Source: Phytohabitans rumicis
GTDB lineage: Bacteria; Actinomycetota; Actinomycetes; Mycobacteriales; Micromonosporaceae
DNA: 64,000 nucleotides
Assembly (NCBI RefSeq): GCF_011764445.1
Contig: NZ_BLPG01000001.1
Span: forward strand, 2,542,001 to 2,606,000
Reading direction: 5' to 3'
Below, one piece after another: positions 156-9,565 of this stretch. Every line of letters starts with the position of its first letter. Position 1 is the first letter of the stretch. Under the pieces are notes generated by a model. That model was not told the DNA's origin and did no database searches. It saw only the letters and a program-made list of their open reading frames with translations. The position numbers and the translations under genes are program-made.

Positions 156-250
156 CGCATATGCATCGGCGCCGATTCCAGGTACATTCGTTTGAACGAT
201 GCCGCCACCGCTGTGGGATCCCTTCGCAAACGTGACCGGGAGGCAGCCAA

Positions 251-424
251 ATGACGCAGAACGACGATTCCGATGTCATCTGCCTCCCGAGATTGGAAGA
301 TCTCTCACCGCGACAGTTACTCGCGCTTGATCGCCCGGTGCTCGCGGACGTAATCCGGGACGAGATCGAGAAATCCGCGGCCGACGACAAGATGGCACGC
401 TTTTCGAACTACCTGTCGCTATAG
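251..424 (+). CDS. fxsA: Fxs-type cyclophane RiPP precursor peptide (variant C-terminal core)
   Basis: A 57-codon gene starts at ATG 251 after a good GGGAGG site six bases upstream and ends four bases before the FxsB-type radical SAM gene. The peptide is acidic, begins MTQNDDSDVICLPRLEDL, and ends KMARFSNYLSL at the C-terminus. Fxs precursors are named for a C-terminal FxSxx-COOH motif, on which FxsB makes a three-residue cyclophane between an aromatic side chain and the third residue. This one lacks an exact FxSxx ending but carries two overlapping candidates, F-S-N and Y-L-S, right at the end. The precursor assignment rests on size, position and the aromatic-x-x terminus. The ring pattern is inference. 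An unrelated small leader protein is the main alternative. Confidence 0.7.
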   Translation: MTQNDDSDVICLPRLEDLSPRQLLALDRPVLADVIRDEIEKSAADDKMARFSNYLSL

Positions 425-428
425 GCCG

Positions 429-1598
429 ATGACCCCCGGGCGGTACGGCGACGCCGGCAGACCGGCGCCGTTCCGGCAGGTGTTACTCAAAATCCACAGT
501 CGCTGCAACCTCTCGTGCGACCACTGCTACATGTACCAGCACGCCGATCAAAGCTGGCGGCACCGGCCGTTCGTGATGTCGAAGCGGACGCTGGATCACA
601 CAGCGGCCCGGATCGCCGACCACGCCATCGAGCATGACCTGCGCTCCGTCGCCGTGATCCTGCACGGCGGCGAGCCGCTGCTGGCCGGTGCGCACACGAT
701 CGACTACGCGGTCCGCGCGATAAAGCGTGCCGTGGGCGACCGCGCCGAGGTCCGCTTCGGGCTCCAGACGAACGGCCTTCTGCTGGACGAACGGTTCCTC
801 GACCTATTCGCCCAGCACGAGATCGGCGTGGGGGTGAGCCTCGACGGTCCCTCGGACGACAACGACCGGCACCGCCGGTACGCGGACGGGCGCGGCAGCC
901 ACGACGGCGTCGTGCCGGCGTTGCACCTGCTCAGGAACGAGCGCTACCGGCACCTGTACGGCGGGATCCTGTGCACAGTGGACCTCGCGAGCGACCCGGA
1001 AGGCGTCTACGCCCACCTGCTCGACTTCGAGCCACCGGAGATCGACTTTCTGCTGCCGCACGGCAACTGGACCAAGCCGCCGCCGGGACGGGTGGACGAC
1101 CCGATCGCGACGCCGTACGCCGACTGGCTGATCACCGTTTTCGACCGGTGGTACCGCGCGCCCGAACGCCGTACCAGGATCCGACTGTTCGAGTCGATCA
1201 TGGCCCTGCTCCTCGGCGGTCGCAGCGGCACCGAGGCCGTCGGGCTCAGCAAGATCGATCTGATCACCGTCGAGACCGACGGCGCCATCGAGCAGGGCGA
1301 CGCCCTCAAGACCACGGAAGAGGGAATGGCGGCGACCGGGCTGCACGTCGCCCGGGATTCGTTCGACCGCGCCCTCGCGCACCCCGCGATCGCCAGCCGG
1401 CAGAGCGGCCTGACCGGACTCTGCGCGACCTGCCGGGACTGTCCCGCCGTGGCGGTCTGCGGCGGCGGCCTGTACGCCCATCGGTATCGCATCGACAATG
1501 GATTCGACAACCCGTCCGTGTACTGCGCCGATCTGCTCGCGATGATCCGGCACATCGCCGTCACGATGTCCGCCGACCTGAATTCGACGCTCGTGTAG
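429..1598 (+). CDS. fxsB: FxsB family cyclophane-forming radical SAM/SPASM peptide maturase
   Basis: This 389-aa protein is a radical SAM enzyme with the CxxxCxxC cluster motif near residue 30 (SRCNLSCDHCYMY), preceded by PFRQVLLKIH, and the HGGEPLL motif that follows in this family. Family hallmarks include QTNGLLLD, GVSLDGPSDDNDRHRRYADG, DFLLPHGNW, YADWLITVFDRWY and RIRLFESIMALLLGG. The C-terminal SPASM-like part (LCATCRDCPAVAVCGGGLYAHRY, residues ~335-357, then FDNPSVYCADLL) supplies auxiliary iron-sulfur ligands. FxsB enzymes link an aromatic ring to the beta carbon of a residue two positions later in a partner peptide, and the 57-aa gene four bases upstream is the obvious substrate. The length is normal. 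The start lies just behind the precursor stop with no strong Shine-Dalgarno site, suggesting translational coupling. Confidence 0.93.
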   Translation: MTPGRYGDAGRPAPFRQVLLKIHSRCNLSCDHCYMYQHADQSWRHRPFVMSKRTLDHTAARIADHAIEHDLRSVAVILHGGEPLLAGAHTIDYAVRAIKRAVGDRAEVRFGLQTNGLLLDERFLDLFAQHEIGVGVSLDGPSDDNDRHRRYADGRGSHDGVVPALHLLRNERYRHLYGGILCTVDLASDPEGVYAHLLDFEPPEIDFLLPHGNWTKPPPGRVDDPIATPYADWLITVFDRWYRAPERRTRIRLFESIMALLLGGRSGTEAVGLSKIDLITVETDGAIEQGDALKTTEEGMAATGLHVARDSFDRALAHPAIASRQSGLTGLCATCRDCPAVAVCGGGLYAHRYRIDNGFDNPSVYCADLLAMIRHIAVTMSADLNSTLV

Positions 1599-1688: not shown

Positions 1689-2873
1689 ATGCGACATTTC
1701 TTCCTCAGCTACTCCCCCGGCACCGATGATCTCTATGTCGCCCGGTTCTTTTTGGATCTATCCGCGGCCGTTCGACGCGAACTCGATCTAGAGCCGGACC
1801 GTGCGGTCGGCTTTCTCGACAACGGCAATACCAGCGACCATTGGCCCAACGAAGTGCGCAACGAGCTGGCCACCTGCCAGACGCTCGTCGTGCTCTACTC
1901 GCCCAAGCTGTTCCTGGACGAGCGCTGCGGTCGGGTCTGGACGGTCTTCGGTGACCGCCTCCGCCGGTACGAGCGGGCCACCGGGCGGCGCGCCCCGGCG
2001 CTGATCCCCGTGACGTGGTCCCGCAGCGGACTGCCGAAGGGCCTGGACCCGGAGGGCGCGGCGACGCCGTACCCGCCCACCGACGACGACGTCCGGGTGC
2101 TGATCCGCCTGCACAGCCGCCAACCGGCGTACCGCGAACTGGTGAATTCCCTCGCCCGGCGGATCGTCGAGACCACCCGCGCGCACCGCATCCCAGCCGC
2201 GCCGCCCGAGGCGGATCTGCCCACCGCGCGGGACGCCTTCGCGTCGTGGCGGAGCAAGGTCGCCCGCGCCGAGCGCCCCCAGCAGATCCACATTGTCGTG
2301 GCCGCCGGCACCCGCGACCAGATGCGGGTGGTGCGCCGGGATGTGGGCTTCTACGGCGACCGGCAGGAGGACTGGGCGCCGTACCAGCCCTCGACCCCGC
2401 TGCCGCTGGCCAGCCGGGCACGCGGGGTGGCCGCCGAGCAGCTGTTCGAGTCGGAGGTCATCCCCATCGGAGCGATCGGTGAGCGGATCGCACGCGCCCG
2501 GGAGCGAAACGAGATCATCGTCCTCCTGGTCGACGCGTGGATCGCCGACGTGGAGCCGTTCCGGGCGGCGCTGGCCTCATTCGACCAGGTCGGCGAGTCA
2601 GCCGTCGCGATCCTCGTCCCCACCAGCCGGGACGACGCCGAGACCACCGACCACCGCTCCGCGCTCCACGTCAGCCTGCTGAACGCGTTCCCGCGCTACG
2701 CACGGCGGCGCGATCCCCTCTTCCGGACGGAGATCGAGACGCCCGGCGGGTTCGACGAGGACCTGGCCGCGGCCCTGGAGGAGGCACAAAATCGGATCTT
2801 CGCGAAGGGCCGGGTGTTCCGCCGGCCGCCGGGTGGCCCGGCCAGCGCCCGCCCCATCCTCGAAGGACCCTAG
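1689..2873 (+). CDS. fxsC: FxsC: TIR-like domain protein of the FxSxx-COOH system
   Basis: A 394-aa protein starting MRHFFLSYSPGTDD at ATG 1689, with GGAAGGGG upstream. Residues 1-160 form a TIR-like fold (FFLSY strand, GFLDNGNTSDHWPNEV, TCQTLVVLYSPKLFLDERCGRVW, ALIPVTW). Residues ~195-385 form the FxsC C-terminal domain: QIHIVVAAGTRDQM, GFYGDRQEDWAPYQP, IGERIARARERNEIIVLLVD, VAILVPTSRDDAET and LLNAFPRYARRRDPLFRTEI. This two-domain combination is diagnostic of FxsC, which accompanies FxsB and FxsT in actinomycetes. Its function is unknown. TIR folds elsewhere act as NADases or protein-interaction modules, and whether it is catalytic here cannot be read from sequence. It lies 90 nt after fxsB and 64 nt before the next TIR-like gene. 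Confidence 0.9.
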   Translation: MRHFFLSYSPGTDDLYVARFFLDLSAAVRRELDLEPDRAVGFLDNGNTSDHWPNEVRNELATCQTLVVLYSPKLFLDERCGRVWTVFGDRLRRYERATGRRAPALIPVTWSRSGLPKGLDPEGAATPYPPTDDDVRVLIRLHSRQPAYRELVNSLARRIVETTRAHRIPAAPPEADLPTARDAFASWRSKVARAERPQQIHIVVAAGTRDQMRVVRRDVGFYGDRQEDWAPYQPSTPLPLASRARGVAAEQLFESEVIPIGAIGERIARARERNEIIVLLVDAWIADVEPFRAALASFDQVGESAVAILVPTSRDDAETTDHRSALHVSLLNAFPRYARRRDPLFRTEIETPGGFDEDLAAALEEAQNRIFAKGRVFRRPPGGPASARPILEGP

Positions 2874-2937: not shown

Positions 2938-3630
2938 ATGCGGTACTTCTTCTTGAGCTACGCGCACGGATCGAGCGACCACCTGGTTGAGGAGTTCTTC
3001 GCGGATCTCTCCGGCGAGGTGCGCGAGCACGCGGGGCGCGAGCGCCAGGAAGAGGTCGGCTTCCTCGACCGCATCCACCTCCACGCCGGCGACCGCTGGC
3101 CGCCCACGCTCATCGAGGCCCTGCAGACCTGCCGCACGTTCATCGCGCTCTGCTCGCCGCGGTACTTCCGCAGCGTCCCTTGTGGAAAGGAATGGGGCGT
3201 CTTCTCCCGGCGGCTGGCCGCCGACCCGTGGCCCGGCCCGCCGTCGCCGGCGTTGATCCCGCTTTTCTGGCTGCCCGCCGAGGTGCCCGCGCACCTTTCC
3301 GACCTGCAATACCGCGACCGGTCGTTCGGCGCGCCCTACGCGGAGCACGGGCTGCGAAAGCTGCTCCAACTGCGGAAGTACCGCGACGACTACCTCGAAT
3401 TCCTCGCCTCCCTCGCGATCCGGGTGACCGCCACGGCGCATGCCCGCAACCCGCCGCCGCTCGCCCCGCCGCCGACGTTCGCGAGCGCGGTCAACGCGTT
3501 CCTCCCCGCGCCACCCGAGCGAAACTCGCCGCCCCGGTCCGCCACCAGACCCGCGAGTACCCGCGGTCCACGGGCGAAGCTCCCCCTTGTCAGCTACGAC
3601 GAAACCAGGGACGAAGATGGATATCGCTGA
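2938..3630 (+). CDS. Stand-alone TIR-like domain protein of the Fxs cluster
   Basis: A 230-aa protein starting MRYFFLSYAHGSSDH at ATG 2938, immediately after a GAGGAGGG ribosome site. It is clearly paralogous to the N-terminal half of FxsC: FFLSYAHG, EEVGFLDRIHLHAGDRWPPTL, TCRTFIALCSPRYF, CGKEWGVFSRRL, ALIPLFWLP and YAEHGLRKLLQLRKYRDDYLEFL line up block by block. It lacks the FxsC C-terminal domain and instead has a proline- and arginine-rich tail from about residue 175. Its end overlaps the start of fxsT by 14 nt, so the two are probably translated together. It was likely made by duplication of the FxsC TIR-like region. No catalytic role can be assigned. Confidence 0.8.
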   Translation: MRYFFLSYAHGSSDHLVEEFFADLSGEVREHAGRERQEEVGFLDRIHLHAGDRWPPTLIEALQTCRTFIALCSPRYFRSVPCGKEWGVFSRRLAADPWPGPPSPALIPLFWLPAEVPAHLSDLQYRDRSFGAPYAEHGLRKLLQLRKYRDDYLEFLASLAIRVTATAHARNPPPLAPPPTFASAVNAFLPAPPERNSPPRSATRPASTRGPRAKLPLVSYDETRDEDGYR

Positions 3631-6600
3631 GTCCGCCGACCGCAATGGACGGATCATCACCTTCTACTCGTTCAAGGGCGGGGTAGGACGGACGATGGCG
3701 CTGGCGAACGTCGCCTGGATCCTCGCCAGCACCGGCCGCAAGGTCCTCACCGTCGACTGGGACCTGGAGTCTCCCGGGCTGCACCGCTACTTCGCGCCGT
3801 TCCTGCTCGACCGGCAGCTGCGCGAGTCTCCCGGGGTCATCGACGCGGTACGCGAGTTCGCCCGGCTCAGCACCCGCCCGGACGCCGGTGAGGTGGTGCG
3901 CGACCTGCGCCCGGAGGACGTCCACGAAGCGGCGCAGATCCAGCGGTACGCCAGCTCCCTGGAACGGTACGAGTTCCCCTACGGCGGCTCGATCGACTTC
4001 GTGCCCGCGGGCCGGCAGGATCGGGCCTACTCGCCCGCGGTGAGCACGTTCAACTGGGACGACTTCTACGAACGGCTCGACGGCGCGGCGTTCCTCGACG
4101 CCCTCGCCGACGACATGCGGCGGCACTACGACGTGACGCTCATCGACAGCCGGACCGGGCTGAGCGACAACGCCGGGATCTGTACCGTGCAGCTCCCCGA
4201 CGCGGTCGTCAGCTGCTTCACCATGAACAACCAGAGCATCGACGGCGCGGTGGCGGTCGCCAACTCGATCCGCCACCAGCGCGGCGACGGCGTGCAGATC
4301 TACCCCGTGCCGACCCGGGTGGAGGACGGCGAGCTCGGCAAGCTGGAACGCGGCCGAAACTACGCGCGGCACCGCTTCGAGGAGTTCGTCCGCCTGCTGG
4401 GGCACCCCGACCCGGAGAAGTACTGGGGACTGGTGGAGATCCCGTACAAGGTCTTCTACGCGTACGAGGAGACGCTGGCGACCTTCGGCGACCGGCCACA
4501 GCAGGAGAGTTCGCTGCTGGCGGCGTACGAACGACTCACCGGTGAGCTGATCGGCGAGCCGATCGAGTTCAGCGGACCGGCCGAGCACGTACGCCGGGGC
4601 TGGCTCGCGGAGTTCGAGCAGCGCGGGTCCGCGGACTCGGCGCCGCTCCTGATCGCGTACACGCCACGGGACCGGGTCTGGGCGGAGTGGATCGCGTTCC
4701 AGCTCCGGCAGATCGGCCAGCGCAGCACGCTGCAGGACCTCTCCAGCCCGCCGGTGCTGGACAAGGTCGGCCGGGTGCTGGTGCTGCTGTCCCGCGAGTC
4801 GGTCCGGCTGCCGCACACTCGCCTGTTCTGGCAGGCCGCGATGGCCCGGGAGACGCCCGGTCCGGGCCGGTTCCTGGTCCCGTTGCGGCTGGAGGGGTTC
4901 CGGGTGCCGCCGCCGTTCGACAACCGCGAGCCGGTCGACCTGTTCAACATCACCGCCGGGCACGCCCGCGAGGCGCTGCTGGCCAAGCTGAACCTGCGCG
5001 ACGCCGCCCTGGCCGTGACCCCGTCCATGAGCAGCGGCCCGCAGCCGCGGTTCCCGGCCGAGCCGGCCCGGGTCTGGCGGGCCCCCGCCCGCAACTCGTC
5101 CTTCACCGGGCGGGACGCCATCCTGGAGTTGCTGCGCGAGCGGCTGAACGCGAGCACCGCCCTCACCGGTCCGGCCGTGCTGCAGGGCATCGGCGGGGTC
5201 GGCAAGACCCAGATCGCGACCGAGTACGTCCACCGGTTCGCCGCCGACTACGACATCGTCTGGTGGATCTCCGCGGACCAGCCCACGCTGATCCGTACCG
5301 CCCTGGCGGATCTCGCCATCGAGCTCGAGCTGCCGGTCACCGGCGGCGCCGCGGAGCAGGTGCAGGCGGTGCTTGAGGCGTTGCGGCTGGGCAAGCCGTC
5401 CAGCCGCTGGATCGTGGTCTTCGACAACGCGGGGACCCCGATCAGATCCGCGAGTTCGTGCCCAGCGGGCTGGGCGACGTGATCATCACGACGCCCGGAC
5501 GGGAGTGGGTACGGGAGGCGTGGACCATCGACGTCAACGTCTTCGAGCGCGCCGAAAGCGTGGCCCTGCTCGCCCGCCGGGTCGAGACGCTCGCCGCCGC
5601 CGACGCGGACGCGATCGCCGAGAAGCTGGGCGACCTGCCCCTCGCGGTGGAGCAGGCGGCCACCTGGTTGGCCACCACCGCCATGACCGCGCGCGGCTAC
5701 TTGGAGCTACTCGACGAGCACCTGCCCCGCATCCTCAACGAGCCGCCGCCACCCGGATATCCGCATCCGGCCGCGAATACCTGGCGGCTTTCCCAGGAGC
5801 GGCTGCGCCAGTCGAACAGAGCCGCTGCTCAACTGCTAGAACTGTTCGCCTTCTTCGCGCCGGAACCGATTCCCACGAAACTGCTGGAAAGCCCCGGAAT
5901 GATCGACACGCTCGAAAAGTTCGACCCAGGGCTGCGCGATCCGCTCCTGCATGGTTCACTCATCCGGGATATCAACCGTTACGGCCTGGCCCGGGTGGAT
6001 CCGGCGATTCCGGCGATACGAATTCACCGCTTGGTGCAGAGTGTCGTCAGGAGTGATCTGTCGGTGACCGTTCAAGAGGAAAGACGGAGACAAGTGCAGC
6101 TGATCTTGGCGGCCGAGCGGCGCGGAGACCCGAGGACTCGGGCGAATTGGCCTACGTACCAGTCGCTCCGCATCCACCTGGAGCCGTCCGGAGCGCTCGA
6201 ATCCGACGATCCCAAGGTCCACGCGCTGGTCATCGACATGGTGCGCTACCTGCGCTACCGCGGCGACCTGGCCGGCAGCCGCGAGCTGGCCGAGCACGCC
6301 GTCGCCAGCTGGCAGCCACGGCTCGGTCCCGACGACGTCGACGTGCTCCGGATCCGGTTGGAACTGGCCAACACCCTGAAGTCGCTGAGCCAGAGCCGCG
6401 ACGCGTACGAGATCGACAACGACATCCTGCCGCGCCTGGAGAGCAGGCTGGGCGCCGAGCATCCGTACGCGCTGCGGGCCCGCCAGGGCCTCGCCTTCGA
6501 CCTGGCCGGTCTCGGCGAATACCGCCGGGCATTCGAGCTGGCGGAAAAGACCTTGCCGACCTGGCGGGAGACCCACGGCGACGATCACGACGAGACCCTC

Positions 6601-7554
6601 AAGGCGTCGAATAACCTGGCCGTGACCTGCCGATTGGTGGGCGACTTCGACCGCGCACTCGAACTCGATGAAGACACCCTCCGCCGGCGGGTCACGCAGT
6701 TTGGTCCCGCCGATGTGCTGACCCTGCAGGTCGCCACCATGTACGGTCGCGACCTGCGTGAAGTCGGCGAGCTGGAAAAGTCCGAGGAGCGGCTGCAAGC
6801 CACTTTCGAGCTGAGCCACAAGGAGTTCGGCGCCGACCACCCGACCACCCTGATCGCCGGAAAGAATCTCGTCGTGACCCGGCGCCGGCGTGGGCGCATC
6901 GACGAGGCCCATGAGCTGATCACCGCGGTACGGCAGGGCTATGCGCGCACCATTCCGCCGATGGGGCCGACGACGCCGGAGGCCGTTCTCGCGTGCACCC
7001 TTGAGGCGGCCTGCGTCCGGTCCGCGCGCGGCGACCACGACGAGGCGCACACGCTCGCCCGGGACGTCCTGGAGAGCTGCCGGGAGCAGCTCGGCCCCGA
7101 CCACCCGTACACCCTCGCCGCCGCCAACGACGTCGGCATCTTCCTCATGCGCGCCGAAGGCCACGAGGAGGCCCGGCCCATCCTCGCGGACACCGCCACC
7201 AGGTTCGCCAACGCCGTCGGCGCCGACCACCCGTACACGCTCGTCTGCCAGATGAACGTGGCCAACGCTCACTTCGCGGCTGGCGAGATCACCGAGGCGC
7301 TCCGCCTCGACCAGCACTGCCACCGGCACTTGGCGGGCAAGTTCAAGAAGGAGCACCCCACCGTGCTCGCCGCCACCGGCAACCTGGCCGCCTCGCTCCG
7401 AGCCACCGGCGCCCGGCACGAGGCCGACGTGCGATCCGACGAGGCCCTGGAGATCTCCCGGCGGGTGCTCGGCGCGGAGCACCCGAGGACGGTCGCCATC
7501 GAAGAAGGCGCCCGCATCAACAGCGACATCGAGCCGGCCGAGACGACGACGTAG
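3617..7554 (+). CDS. fxsT: FxsT: ParA-like/TIR-like/NB-ARC/TPR protein of the FxSxx-COOH system (apparent 1-nt frameshift)
   Basis: If one missing base is restored this is a ~1310-aa protein. It opens GRIITFYSFKGGVGRT, a ParA/SRPI-type ATPase with a deviant Walker A, followed by VLTVDWDLESPGLHRYF. Around residues 340-470 is a second TIR-like segment (LLIAYTPRDRVWAEWIAFQL). An NB-ARC module follows, with a P-loop GIGGVGKT near residue 525, WWISADQPTLI and, across the break, a predicted GLGDVIITTPGREW. From about residue 860 it is a long array of NB-ARC-linked tetratricopeptide repeats (for example GDLAGSRELAEHAV, ALRARQGLAFDLAGLGEYRRAFELAEK). The reading frame is lost at the GGGG at 5431-5434 (after VVFDNAG) and resumes in the next frame (DQIREFVPSGLG), as expected for one missing G. 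In the given sequence the first part stops at 5482. The architecture is that of an NLR-like sensor, but its trigger and output are unknown. Confidence 0.88.
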
Positions 7555-7557
7555 AAA

Positions 7558-8355
7558 TCACCCGGTACCCGGCGGCCGCCGGTGCTCCGACATCCACGTC
7601 ACCGCGTAAGCCACCGCTTCGCGGATGCGCAGGAATCGGGCGGCCGCTCCCCCGACGGCACCCTTGACAACGGATCCGTTGCCGCGTTCGAGTTCCGCTC
7701 CGATCACGGGGAAATCGTCCGCGTTCAGTTCCATGCCCTGGTAATCCAGCCAGCGCCGGCCCGCCGGGCCCAGCACGACGCATCGGTTCGGCCGGCGCCG
7801 CTGCCAGGGCAGCCGGTACTCGGCCAGGTGCAGGGCGGTGCACCGGTCGTACCCGACGCCGAGCAGCAGCGTCCGCGCGTCGGCGGCCTCCAGCGCCGCC
7901 AGTGGGGATGACTCGCCCAGCTCCGATTCGAGGTCGTGCACCGCCATGAGGTCGGCGGCCCGCGCCCCTATCGCGACGAACGACGTCTGGGGATGAGCGC
8001 TGCGGACGGCGCCTGGCCAGGTCCGGACCGTCTCGGCGACCAGGCCCATCGCCCGGCAGTCGCTGATGGCGGGATCGAACCCGGGCAGATGGTCCCGGAT
8101 CACCGGCCACCACTCTTCCGGCACCGGGCGGTGTGACCAGCGCGACGGGTCGCGATTGTCCGAGGTCTGGGCGAAGACGGCGAGCGTTCCGCGGTCACCC
8201 AGGACGTCCAGGAACGCGTGCACCACCGCCGCCGGGCCCCCACACACCCATCCGACGGCCCGCAGCGACGAGTGGAGCAGGATCGTGTCGCCCGCCCGCA
8301 CGCCCAGCGCCGACAGATCCGCCGCCAACGAGGAGCGCGTATGGGGAGGAGCCAT
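7558..8355 (-). CDS. AAC(3) family N-acetyltransferase
   Basis: A 265-aa protein read from ATG 8355. It shows the antibiotic N-acetyltransferase family pattern: ILLHSSLRAVGWVCGGP near the start, then GTLAVFAQT, HPQTSFVAIGA, LGESSPLAAL and LLLGVGYDRCTALHLAEYR. Enzymes of this family move an acetyl group from acetyl-CoA to the 3-amino group of 2-deoxystreptamine aminoglycosides, but many members have other amine substrates. It ends three bases from the convergent end of fxsT. AAC(3)-like genes recur beside FxSxx-COOH clusters, so a role in tailoring or immunity for the peptide is as plausible as aminoglycoside resistance. Its start codon overlaps the first possible ATG of the divergent P450 gene, so one of the two starts is probably misplaced. 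Confidence 0.85.
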   Translation of the reverse strand: MAPPHTRSSLAADLSALGVRAGDTILLHSSLRAVGWVCGGPAAVVHAFLDVLGDRGTLAVFAQTSDNRDPSRWSHRPVPEEWWPVIRDHLPGFDPAISDCRAMGLVAETVRTWPGAVRSAHPQTSFVAIGARAADLMAVHDLESELGESSPLAALEAADARTLLLGVGYDRCTALHLAEYRLPWQRRRPNRCVVLGPAGRRWLDYQGMELNADDFPVIGAELERGNGSVVKGAVGGAAARFLRIREAVAYAVTWMSEHRRPPGTG

Positions 8356-9565
8356 GGGCCGGATTCTGCCAAGCGACCGGCGCGGTAGCGTGGCCGGCGT
8401 GCTGTTCCGGACCTGGGCCGAGCCGGTGGCGCGGGAGTGGCCCGACGTCGCGACCGTCGCCGACCACACCGGTGTCGATCACCTCGTGGTCACCCAGCAC
8501 GCGCTGGTCCGCGCGGTGCTGGCCGATCAGGAGGCGTTCCGCCCCGACAACGCGCTCGACGCGGTCAGCCCGATCCCGGTCGCCGCGCTCCGGATCCTCA
8601 CCCACCACGGCTTCCGCCTCCCGCCGACCCTGGCCAACAACGGCCACCCCAGCCACCCCGCGATCCGCGCGATCGTCGCCGACGCGCTGCACCCGCACCG
8701 GGTCGAGGAGCAGAGACCCTGGCTGACCGCCGTCGTGCGGGAGCGGGTCCGCCGCCTCGGCGCCGACCTCGACACCGGCAAGAGCGTCGACGTGTACGCG
8801 GAGCTGGCAGCCGACCTGCCGCTGCTGGTCCTGGCCCGGCTGGTCGACCTGCCCGAGGCGGACGCGGCGGTGGTGAAGGAGTTCGCGCGGGCCGCGCTGG
8901 AGCTCTTCTGGGCGCCGGTCGACCTCGACCGGCAGGTGGCCCTGGCCGAGGCGGTGGGACGGTTCCACGCGGTCCTGCGGGAGTTCGCCGCGTCGGCTCC
9001 GGGGCTGCCGGCGCGCCTGCGGGCGTACGCCGGCGACGACGACCTCGTGGTCGGCGCGCTCTTCTTCCTCTTGGTGGCCGGGCAGGAGACGACGTCGCAG
9101 TTCCTGACCCTGCTGCTGCACCGGCTGGCCGGCGAGCCGGCGGTGCTCGACGGCCTGCGGGCCGGTACGGTCAGCGTCGACGACGTCGTCGAGGAGGGCC
9201 TCCGTCTGGAGCCGCCGATCGTCACCTGGCGCCGGGTCGCGGCCCGCGACACGAGCATCGGGGGTACGCCGGTCGCGCGCGGCACGAGCATCGTGTTGTG
9301 GCTGGCCCGGGCCGGTCGCGACAGGGCGGTCGTGTCGAATCCGGACGAGTTCCGCCCGGGTCAACGCGGATCCCGCCGCCACCTCGCGTTCGGCGCCGGC
9401 GCCCACCGCTGCGTCGGCGCCCAGCTGTCCCGGATGGAGGCGTCCGTGGTGGTGGCGGAGACGTTCCCCCTGCTCCGCGACGCGGTAGTGATCCGCGAAC
9501 CGTGGTGCCCCGACAACCTGAGCTTCCGCATGCCAGACGCCTTCGTCATCTCCCGCCCCCAGTAG
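8354..9565 (+). CDS. Cytochrome P450
   Basis: A P450 of about 403 aa with all diagnostic motifs: I-helix LLVAGQETTSQ, K-helix ExxR within EEGLRLEPP, and the heme loop FGAGAHRCVGAQLSR with the thiolate cysteine near residue 352. No membrane anchor is present, so it is a soluble bacterial class I enzyme needing ferredoxin partners, and none is encoded nearby. ATG 8354 overlaps the divergent acetyltransferase start. GTG 8390 or GTG 8399 (before LFRTWAEPVAREW) are better-spaced alternatives. Its position just outside the Fxs peptide cluster makes a tailoring role possible but unproven. An independent secondary-metabolism or catabolic enzyme is equally possible. Confidence 0.9.
   Translation: MGRILPSDRRGSVAGVLFRTWAEPVAREWPDVATVADHTGVDHLVVTQHALVRAVLADQEAFRPDNALDAVSPIPVAALRILTHHGFRLPPTLANNGHPSHPAIRAIVADALHPHRVEEQRPWLTAVVRERVRRLGADLDTGKSVDVYAELAADLPLLVLARLVDLPEADAAVVKEFARAALELFWAPVDLDRQVALAEAVGRFHAVLREFAASAPGLPARLRAYAGDDDLVVGALFFLLVAGQETTSQFLTLLLHRLAGEPAVLDGLRAGTVSVDDVVEEGLRLEPPIVTWRRVAARDTSIGGTPVARGTSIVLWLARAGRDRAVVSNPDEFRPGQRGSRRHLAFGAGAHRCVGAQLSRMEASVVVAETFPLLRDAVVIREPWCPDNLSFRMPDAFVISRPQ

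What the first reader, a model, noticed from the sequence alone, without database searches (positions are those of the whole stretch)
251..1598. Fxs-type cyclophane peptide with a non-canonical core, RFSNYLSL
Seen: a 57-aa gene ending RFSNYLSL lies four bases before a clear FxsB radical SAM/SPASM gene. Known: FxsB enzymes act on precursors ending FxSxx and join an aromatic side chain to the third residue of an aromatic-x-x triplet. Here the canonical ending is absent and two overlapping triplets, F-S-N and Y-L-S, sit at the extreme C-terminus. Inference: the product may carry one or two cyclophanes, including a Phe-Asn link more typical of other triceptide classes, so this would be a variant class of FxsB substrate.
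Basis: partly seen in the sequence, partly recalled or inferred. Interest (0 to 1): 0.75.

Follow-up and report, generated by a model that had tools for sequence, protein, structure and literature searches.

The report
Tailed Phe-Asn variant of Fxs peptide
A soil actinomycete carries a small peptide gene next to a ring-forming enzyme; the peptide looks like a known family of ring-bearing peptides, with asparagine in place of serine in the predicted ring and two extra residues at its end, so it is a modest variant rather than a new kind of system.

Summary
In detail: a 57-aa ORF (251-424) ending RFSNYLSL lies 4 bases before a clear FxsB gene (429-1598; TIGR04269, 517.5 bits, cut-off 370). FxsC, a TIR protein, an FxsT-type STAND/TPR protein (split by a frameshift) and an AAC(3)-like acetyltransferase follow; the genome groups with Phytohabitans. 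The ending is less odd than claimed. In 75 FxsB-adjacent precursors picked from 121 upstream stretches of one family, residue 3 of the Phe triplet is Ser in 39, Asn in 31, Ala in 5, and 33 of 75 run past FxZxx. P. suffuscus has a second precursor ending FSNYV. So FSNYL-SL reads as an F-x-N-[Y/F]-[I/L/V] core plus a two-residue tail. The window's FxsB lies in a moderately supported group of 27 (26 Asn) and in a well-supported subgroup of 11 whose 11 precursors have tails. Across 10 of those 11, in the C-terminal part only Phe51 (10 of 10) and Asn53 (9 of 10) are conserved. One Phe-Asn cyclophane is the best prediction; a second Tyr-Leu-Ser ring lacks support but is not excluded. Unexpected: AAC(3)-like genes recur at such Fxs loci.

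The parts
238..243 (+). ribosome-binding site of the precursor gene (GGGAGG)
   Evidence: sequence; GGAGG aligned in four Phytohabitans loci
251..424 (+). 57-aa precursor peptide (FxsA-like) ending RFSNYLSL
   Evidence: positional orthologues; no NCBIfam hit at E <= 10
401..409 (+). predicted ring triplet Phe51-Ser52-Asn53
   Evidence: F 10 of 10, N 9 of 10 in aligned tailed precursors
416..421 (+). two-residue C-terminal tail Ser-Leu
   Evidence: orthologues L002 and L004 end SP at the same distance from Phe
429..1598 (+). FxsB radical SAM/SPASM cyclophane synthase
   Evidence: TIGR04269 517.5 bits, cut-off 370; tree position
1689..2873 (+). FxsC (TIR-like)
   Evidence: TIGR04276 147.5 bits against 55; NF040588 117.2 against 130, below cut-off
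2938..3630 (+). second FxsC-N-type TIR protein
   Evidence: NF040588 156.2 bits against 130; TIR_2
3617..7554 (+). FxsT-type protein: KGGVGR/MinD-like + TIR + STAND NTPase + TPR, split into 3617-5482 and 5458-7554 by a frameshift
   Evidence: NF047398, NF040586, Pfam; one continuous frame at this point in the fetched relatives that span it
7558..8469 (-). AAC(3)-like N-acetyltransferase (PF02522), recurrent neighbour of Fxs loci
   Evidence: PF02522 278.3 bits

Best explanation
It is an Fxs-type triceptide locus. The 57-aa peptide has an N-terminal leader (about residues 1-49), an F51-S52-N53-Y54-L55 core and a Ser-Leu tail. FxsB most likely forms one three-residue cyclophane by joining the Phe51 ring to the beta-carbon of Asn53. 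Tyr54-Leu55 are the aromatic-aliphatic residues that commonly follow Asn in such precursors. The tail goes with this FxsB subgroup; whether it is removed is unknown, and no protease gene was recognised here. The product probably acts as a signal or toxin linked to the adjacent TIR/STAND/TPR proteins, and the AAC(3)-like enzyme may acetylate it. Shown: genes, conservation, tree position. Inferred: ring, processing, function.
For: FxsB identity. Adjacency, ribosome-binding site and aligned upstream region. An adjacent ORF ends F-x-[NSA]-x-x at 45 of 121 FxsB loci against 3 of 121 for antisense ORFs; with the looser test (F-x-[NSA] in the last 15 residues) 76 against 23. Asn at position 3 in 31 of 75 precursors, with Phe or Tyr next in 24 of those 31. 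Asn clusters on the FxsB tree: 5 changes, shuffled mean 23.9, 0 of 500 shuffles as low. Phe51 10 of 10, Asn53 9 of 10. An FNNYI precursor passes TIGR04268, 32.9 against 28 bits. Phe C4-Asn C-beta links are reported for XncB/OscB and Phe-Ser for MscB (PMC11002830, passages). Fxs peptide systems with AP-ATPase, TIR, MinD-like and TPR parts: PMC7159879 section 24.
Against: No experiment. One orthologue, FxsB 73% identical, has Ser instead of Asn (FDSALSP, L004). The window's peptide does not match TIGR04268 (a weak test: the genome's own FQSAI precursor gives no match either). FxsT is frameshifted, so the locus may be decaying or mis-assembled. The Asn group has only moderate support (91/86). Position 3 was counted on precursors picked with a pattern.
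Confidence: 0.68

Rival explanations
1. Two cyclophanes: FxsB joins Phe51-Asn53 and Tyr54-Ser56, giving a bicyclic C-terminus.
For: Both triplets are present. Of 24 Asn-type precursors with an aromatic residue after Asn, 8 have Ser two residues further, among them FTNFVS-COOH (4) and FNNFVS-COOH (1). The nearest solved relative, ChlB (9gm3), is called a multiple cyclophane synthase in a reference title.
Against: Of the same 24, 8 end before that position and 6 have Gly or Pro there (tally by eye from the list). Orthologues L002 and L004 have Ala in place of Tyr54. The aromatic residue is present whether or not a third residue follows.
Confidence: 0.15
2. The ring is Tyr54-Leu-Ser56, as a shortened aromatic-x-S-x ending that mimics FxSxx.
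For: Y-L-S-L is aromatic-x-S-x at the C-terminus; L002, L003 and L004 have Ser at -2.
Against: Tyr54 is not conserved in the orthologues; Phe51 is invariant in 10 of 10.
Confidence: 0.05
3. The locus is decaying and the peptide is no longer matured or used.
For: FxsT is frameshifted; the second FxsA/FxsB module of relatives is missing from this genome's FxsB matches; the genome's other FxsB is also frameshifted.
Against: FxsB, the precursor and its upstream region are intact and aligned across four loci. Completeness of 96, 93 and 89% in this genome and two congeners makes assembly frame errors plausible (inference).
Confidence: 0.1
4. The 57-aa ORF is spurious and the real substrate lies elsewhere.
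For: Precursor sequence is poorly conserved: best match in another genome E 0.029 (G004), the positional orthologue in G031 only E 0.05.
Against: Positional orthologues with Phe near the C-terminus in the three congeners that have this FxsB, aligned upstream region and ribosome-binding site, low chance rate.
Confidence: 0.02

Closest known systems
FxSxx-COOH / FxsB triceptide systems (TIGR04268, TIGR04269; MscB type)
   Same: FxsB over cut-off, small upstream precursor with a C-terminal Phe-x-x triplet, FxsC and FxsT genes alongside
   Different: Asn instead of Ser at position 3, a two-residue tail, no match to TIGR04268. That MscB (IPR026335) is an FxsB is recalled
Asn-type triceptides of XncB and OscB (PMC11002830, passages seen)
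   Same: predicted Phe C4-Asn C-beta link
   Different: other radical SAM families; here the enzyme is FxsB
Second FxsA/FxsB module of Phytohabitans suffuscus (L059, precursor ending FSNYV)
   Same: core FSNY[L/V]; FxsB in the same Asn-type group
   Different: no tail; FxsB 61% identical to the window's
Standalone peptide-processing conflict systems (Kaur et al. 2020, PMC7159879, section 24 read)
   Same: FxSxx-type peptide, radical SAM/SPASM enzyme, AP-ATPase with TIR, MinD/ParA-like domain and TPRs
   Different: no HExxH gene at the window locus; an AAC(3)-like gene present

Membership tests
FxsB (TIGR04269) | score over the curated cut-off of 370 bits | tested here: met
   517.5 bits
FxsB (TIGR04269) | radical SAM CX3CX2C and SPASM cysteines | tested here: met
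   Cys26/30/33 and 332/335/338/344/366
FxsB (TIGR04269) | cyclophane-forming activity | not testable with these tools
   needs co-expression and MS/NMR
FxSxx-COOH precursor (TIGR04268) | score over the cut-off of 28 bits | tested here: not met
   no hit at E <= 10; the model also misses the genome's FQSAI precursor
FxSxx-COOH precursor (TIGR04268) | F-x-S-x-x at the C-terminus | tested here: not met
   F-x-N-x-x plus SL
FxSxx-COOH precursor (TIGR04268) | encoded next to FxsB | tested here: met
   4-base gap
Triceptide | conserved aromatic-x-x triplet near the C-terminus | tested here: met
   F51 10 of 10, N53 9 of 10
Triceptide | aryl to C-beta crosslink | not testable with these tools
   chemistry not observable in sequence
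FxsT (NF040586) | score over the cut-off of 300 bits | tested here: met
   731.9 bits for the 5458-7554 piece; the gene is split
FxsC (TIGR04276 / NF040588) | both domain cut-offs | tested here: inconclusive
   1689-2873: 147.5 against 55 met, 117.2 against 130 not met
Standalone FxSxx conflict system (Kaur et al. 2020) | AP-ATPase with TIR, MinD-like domain and TPRs | tested here: met
Standalone FxSxx conflict system (Kaur et al. 2020) | zincin/HExxH gene in the locus | tested here: not met
   TIGR04267 matches in the genome lie elsewhere, one at the second Fxs locus, none in the window
Multi-ring substrate (ChlB-like) | second aromatic triplet conserved | tested here: not met
   Tyr54 and Ser56 vary

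The most novel reading that the evidence does not exclude
A branch of FxsB, so far seen only in this family, makes Phe-Asn triceptides with C-terminal tails. It is normally paired with a second, short-ended Asn-type peptide and enzyme, with two sets of TIR/STAND/TPR proteins, and an AAC(3)-type acetyltransferase caps the released peptide: a two-peptide, acetylated ligand system for bacterial STAND signalling. The window would be a single-module version.
Probability: 0.2. Interest if true: 0.65.

Novelty: new variant of a known kind. Interest (0 to 1): 0.36.

Why it matters
It points to an FxsB branch that seems to have changed its acceptor residue from Ser to Asn and to accept tails, which would help in reading FxsB specificity from sequence and in annotating precursors that TIGR04268 misses. 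The recurrent AAC(3)-like gene suggests a tailoring or self-protection step for Fxs peptides; I saw no mention of it in the listing (10 of 27 papers shown) or in the passages and section of PMC7159879, but the main triceptide papers are not held.

Tried and rejected
A search with the 57-aa peptide alone gave no significant relative (18 of 61 genomes at E <= 1, own included; best other E 0.029), so precursors were found by position upstream of FxsB. A scan of genome contigs gave 4 loci, 3 of them on contigs also fetched by other calls. PADLOC gave a viperin-family match of 44.7 bits to FxsB and PDC-M28B (95.6 bits) to the ATPase part of FxsT. Promoter and terminator scans found nothing. The P450 at 8066-9565 was considered as a tailoring enzyme and set aside: it sits beside a gene whose best NCBIfam match is bioF (364 bits, below cut-off) and a BATS radical SAM gene, read as biotin genes. 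Papers: the triceptide and FxsB papers tried are not held, so whether an FxsB-made Phe-Asn ring is in print could not be checked.

Rows dropped before counts: of 121 upstream stretches (the window's own included), 75 precursors were picked by eye from the output and 46 were left unassigned, among them L081 (ending FQN) and L058 (FDSAL, gap 171, just outside the limit). The pattern was Phe-x-[NSDTQHA], so other position-3 residues would be missed. L013 was not put in the alignment. L212 was left out of the tree as a repeat of L085. PF02522 matches and FxsB matches were listed by capped tables and compared by eye.

Full report
What is there. An ORF of 57 codons (251-424) with a GGGAGG ribosome-binding site ends RFSNYLSL, and an FxsB gene begins four bases later. 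FxsB passes TIGR04269 (517.5 against 370 bits). FxsC (1689-2873), a second TIR protein (2938-3630) and an FxsT-type MinD-like/TIR/STAND/TPR protein follow; the last is split into 3617-5482 and 5458-7554 by a frameshift, while the fetched relatives that span this point read through in one frame. An AAC(3)-like gene lies at 7558-8469 on the other strand. Upstream are rhamnose genes and a methyltransferase gene, downstream biotin-type genes. No HExxH gene lies in the window; the genome's matches to that family are elsewhere.

Is it more than chance. Of 308 ORFs of 30-140 aa in the window, F-x-N falls in the last 10 residues of one, this ORF; F-x-[NS] does in 5. Across 121 stretches upstream of FxsB genes an adjacent ORF ends exactly F-x-[NSA]-x-x at 45 loci and antisense ORFs do so at 3; with the motif anywhere in the last 15 residues it is 76 against 23. 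The stretch upstream of the precursor, including the ribosome-binding site, aligns in four Phytohabitans loci.

What the ending means. The three congeners whose FxsB is 73-84% identical have precursors ending FQNAPSP, FQNYIGDLRGRMSP and FDSALSP. In 75 precursors picked by position and pattern (of 121 stretches; 46 unassigned) the third residue of the Phe triplet is Ser in 39, Asn in 31 and Ala in 5; 42 stop at FxZxx and 33 run on by 1-24 residues. Asn-type precursors carry Phe or Tyr next in 24 of 31. Examples are FNNYI, FNNFM and, beside the second FxsB of P. suffuscus, FSNYV. RFSNYLSL is thus F-x-N-aromatic-aliphatic plus a tail.

Tree. Asn and Ser precursors sort on the FxsB tree (Asn: 5 changes, shuffled mean 23.9, 0 of 500 as low). 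The window's FxsB is in a group of 27 (26 Asn, 1 Ser; support 91/86) and in a starred subgroup of 11 (98/97) whose 11 precursors have tails of 2-18 residues. None of the 28 FxsB proteins fetched from outside the family fell in the group of 27; 53 of 296 class genomes, a few of this family among them, had a match at E <= 1e-110. Near-copies and shared ancestry inflate such clustering.

One ring or two. In an alignment of 10 of the 11 tailed precursors Met1 and Phe51 are invariant and Leu31 and Asn53 are in 9 of 10; Tyr54 and Ser56 vary. Of 24 Asn-type precursors with an aromatic residue after Asn, 8 end too early for a second triplet, 6 have Gly or Pro there, and 10 could form one (8 Ser, 1 Asn, 1 Ala; by eye). 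One ring is favoured. Two are not excluded, the more so as the nearest solved relative is ChlB, named a multiple cyclophane synthase in a reference title.

Neighbours. Nine of the 11 tailed FxsB loci have a second FxsB 6.8-7.9 kb on; its precursor was found in 7 of 9 (FSNYV, FANRI, FTNFVS in four, FNNFVS) and not in 2; a second FxsT/FxsC set facing it was seen in 8 of 9. The window genome lacks this module. AAC(3)-like genes lie in 13 of 20 fetched Fxs stretches, in 7 of the 13 just upstream of the precursor on the same strand; by coordinates 3 more lie within about 15 kb of FxsB. L059, L060, L061 and L072 have none nearby. The window genome has two PF02522 matches, one at each of its two FxsB loci; at the second the order is FxsA (FQSAI), FxsB (frameshifted) with HExxH, AAC(3), TIR, FxsC, FxsT. 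Against this: PF02522 genes are common (186 of 300 family genomes), many of the listed ones have no listed FxsB nearby (not counted; both lists are capped), and the 20 loci are related, so they are not independent. The closest solved relative of the AAC(3)-like protein is FrbF, a biosynthetic acetyltransferase (function recalled), which fits a tailoring role; this is inference.

Known or new. Phe-Ser rings by MscB and Phe-Asn rings by XncB/OscB are given in PMC11002830 (passages); that MscB is an FxsB is recalled. Kaur et al. 2020 (PMC7159879, section 24 read) describe FxSxx peptide systems coupled to TIR/AP-ATPase/TPR proteins, some standalone with a MinD-like domain, and propose a toxin or signal role. 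An FNNYI precursor already passes TIGR04268. The window's does not, nor does the genome's own FQSAI precursor, so that model is a weak test. The system is known; the tailed Asn-type ending is a variant.

Noticed in passing
window 7558-8469 and L199 6947-7711: AAC(3)-like N-acetyltransferase genes recur beside Fxs loci; both PF02522 matches of the genome sit at its two FxsB loci.
   Followed up: partly
window 5458-5482: Frameshift splits the FxsT-type gene; fetched relatives that span the point read through in one frame, though P. flavus (L060) is broken further on. Real or assembly error not settled.
   Followed up: partly
L199 (G000:C1:6506000-6519000): Second Fxs locus of the genome with an FQSAI-ending precursor, a frameshifted FxsB and an HExxH domain in the same open frame as the FxsB end.
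   Followed up: partly
L059-L065, L068, L070: Two FxsA/FxsB modules 6.8-7.9 kb apart, tailed peptide first and, where found (7 of 9), a short-ended peptide second.
   Followed up: partly
L219, L223: FxsB-upstream ORFs with tandem GNFNSFIE / GNFSSFIE repeats, suggesting multi-core precursors.
   Followed up: no
L107, L129, L147, L150: Four precursors with Ala at position 3 (FNAAPLRR[S/P]) form a tight FxsB group, each with a PF02522 gene within 0.5 kb of FxsB on the same strand by coordinates.
   Followed up: no
window 160-250: Upstream stretch with GGTACATTCG and further blocks conserved in four Phytohabitans loci; possible regulatory element.
   Followed up: no
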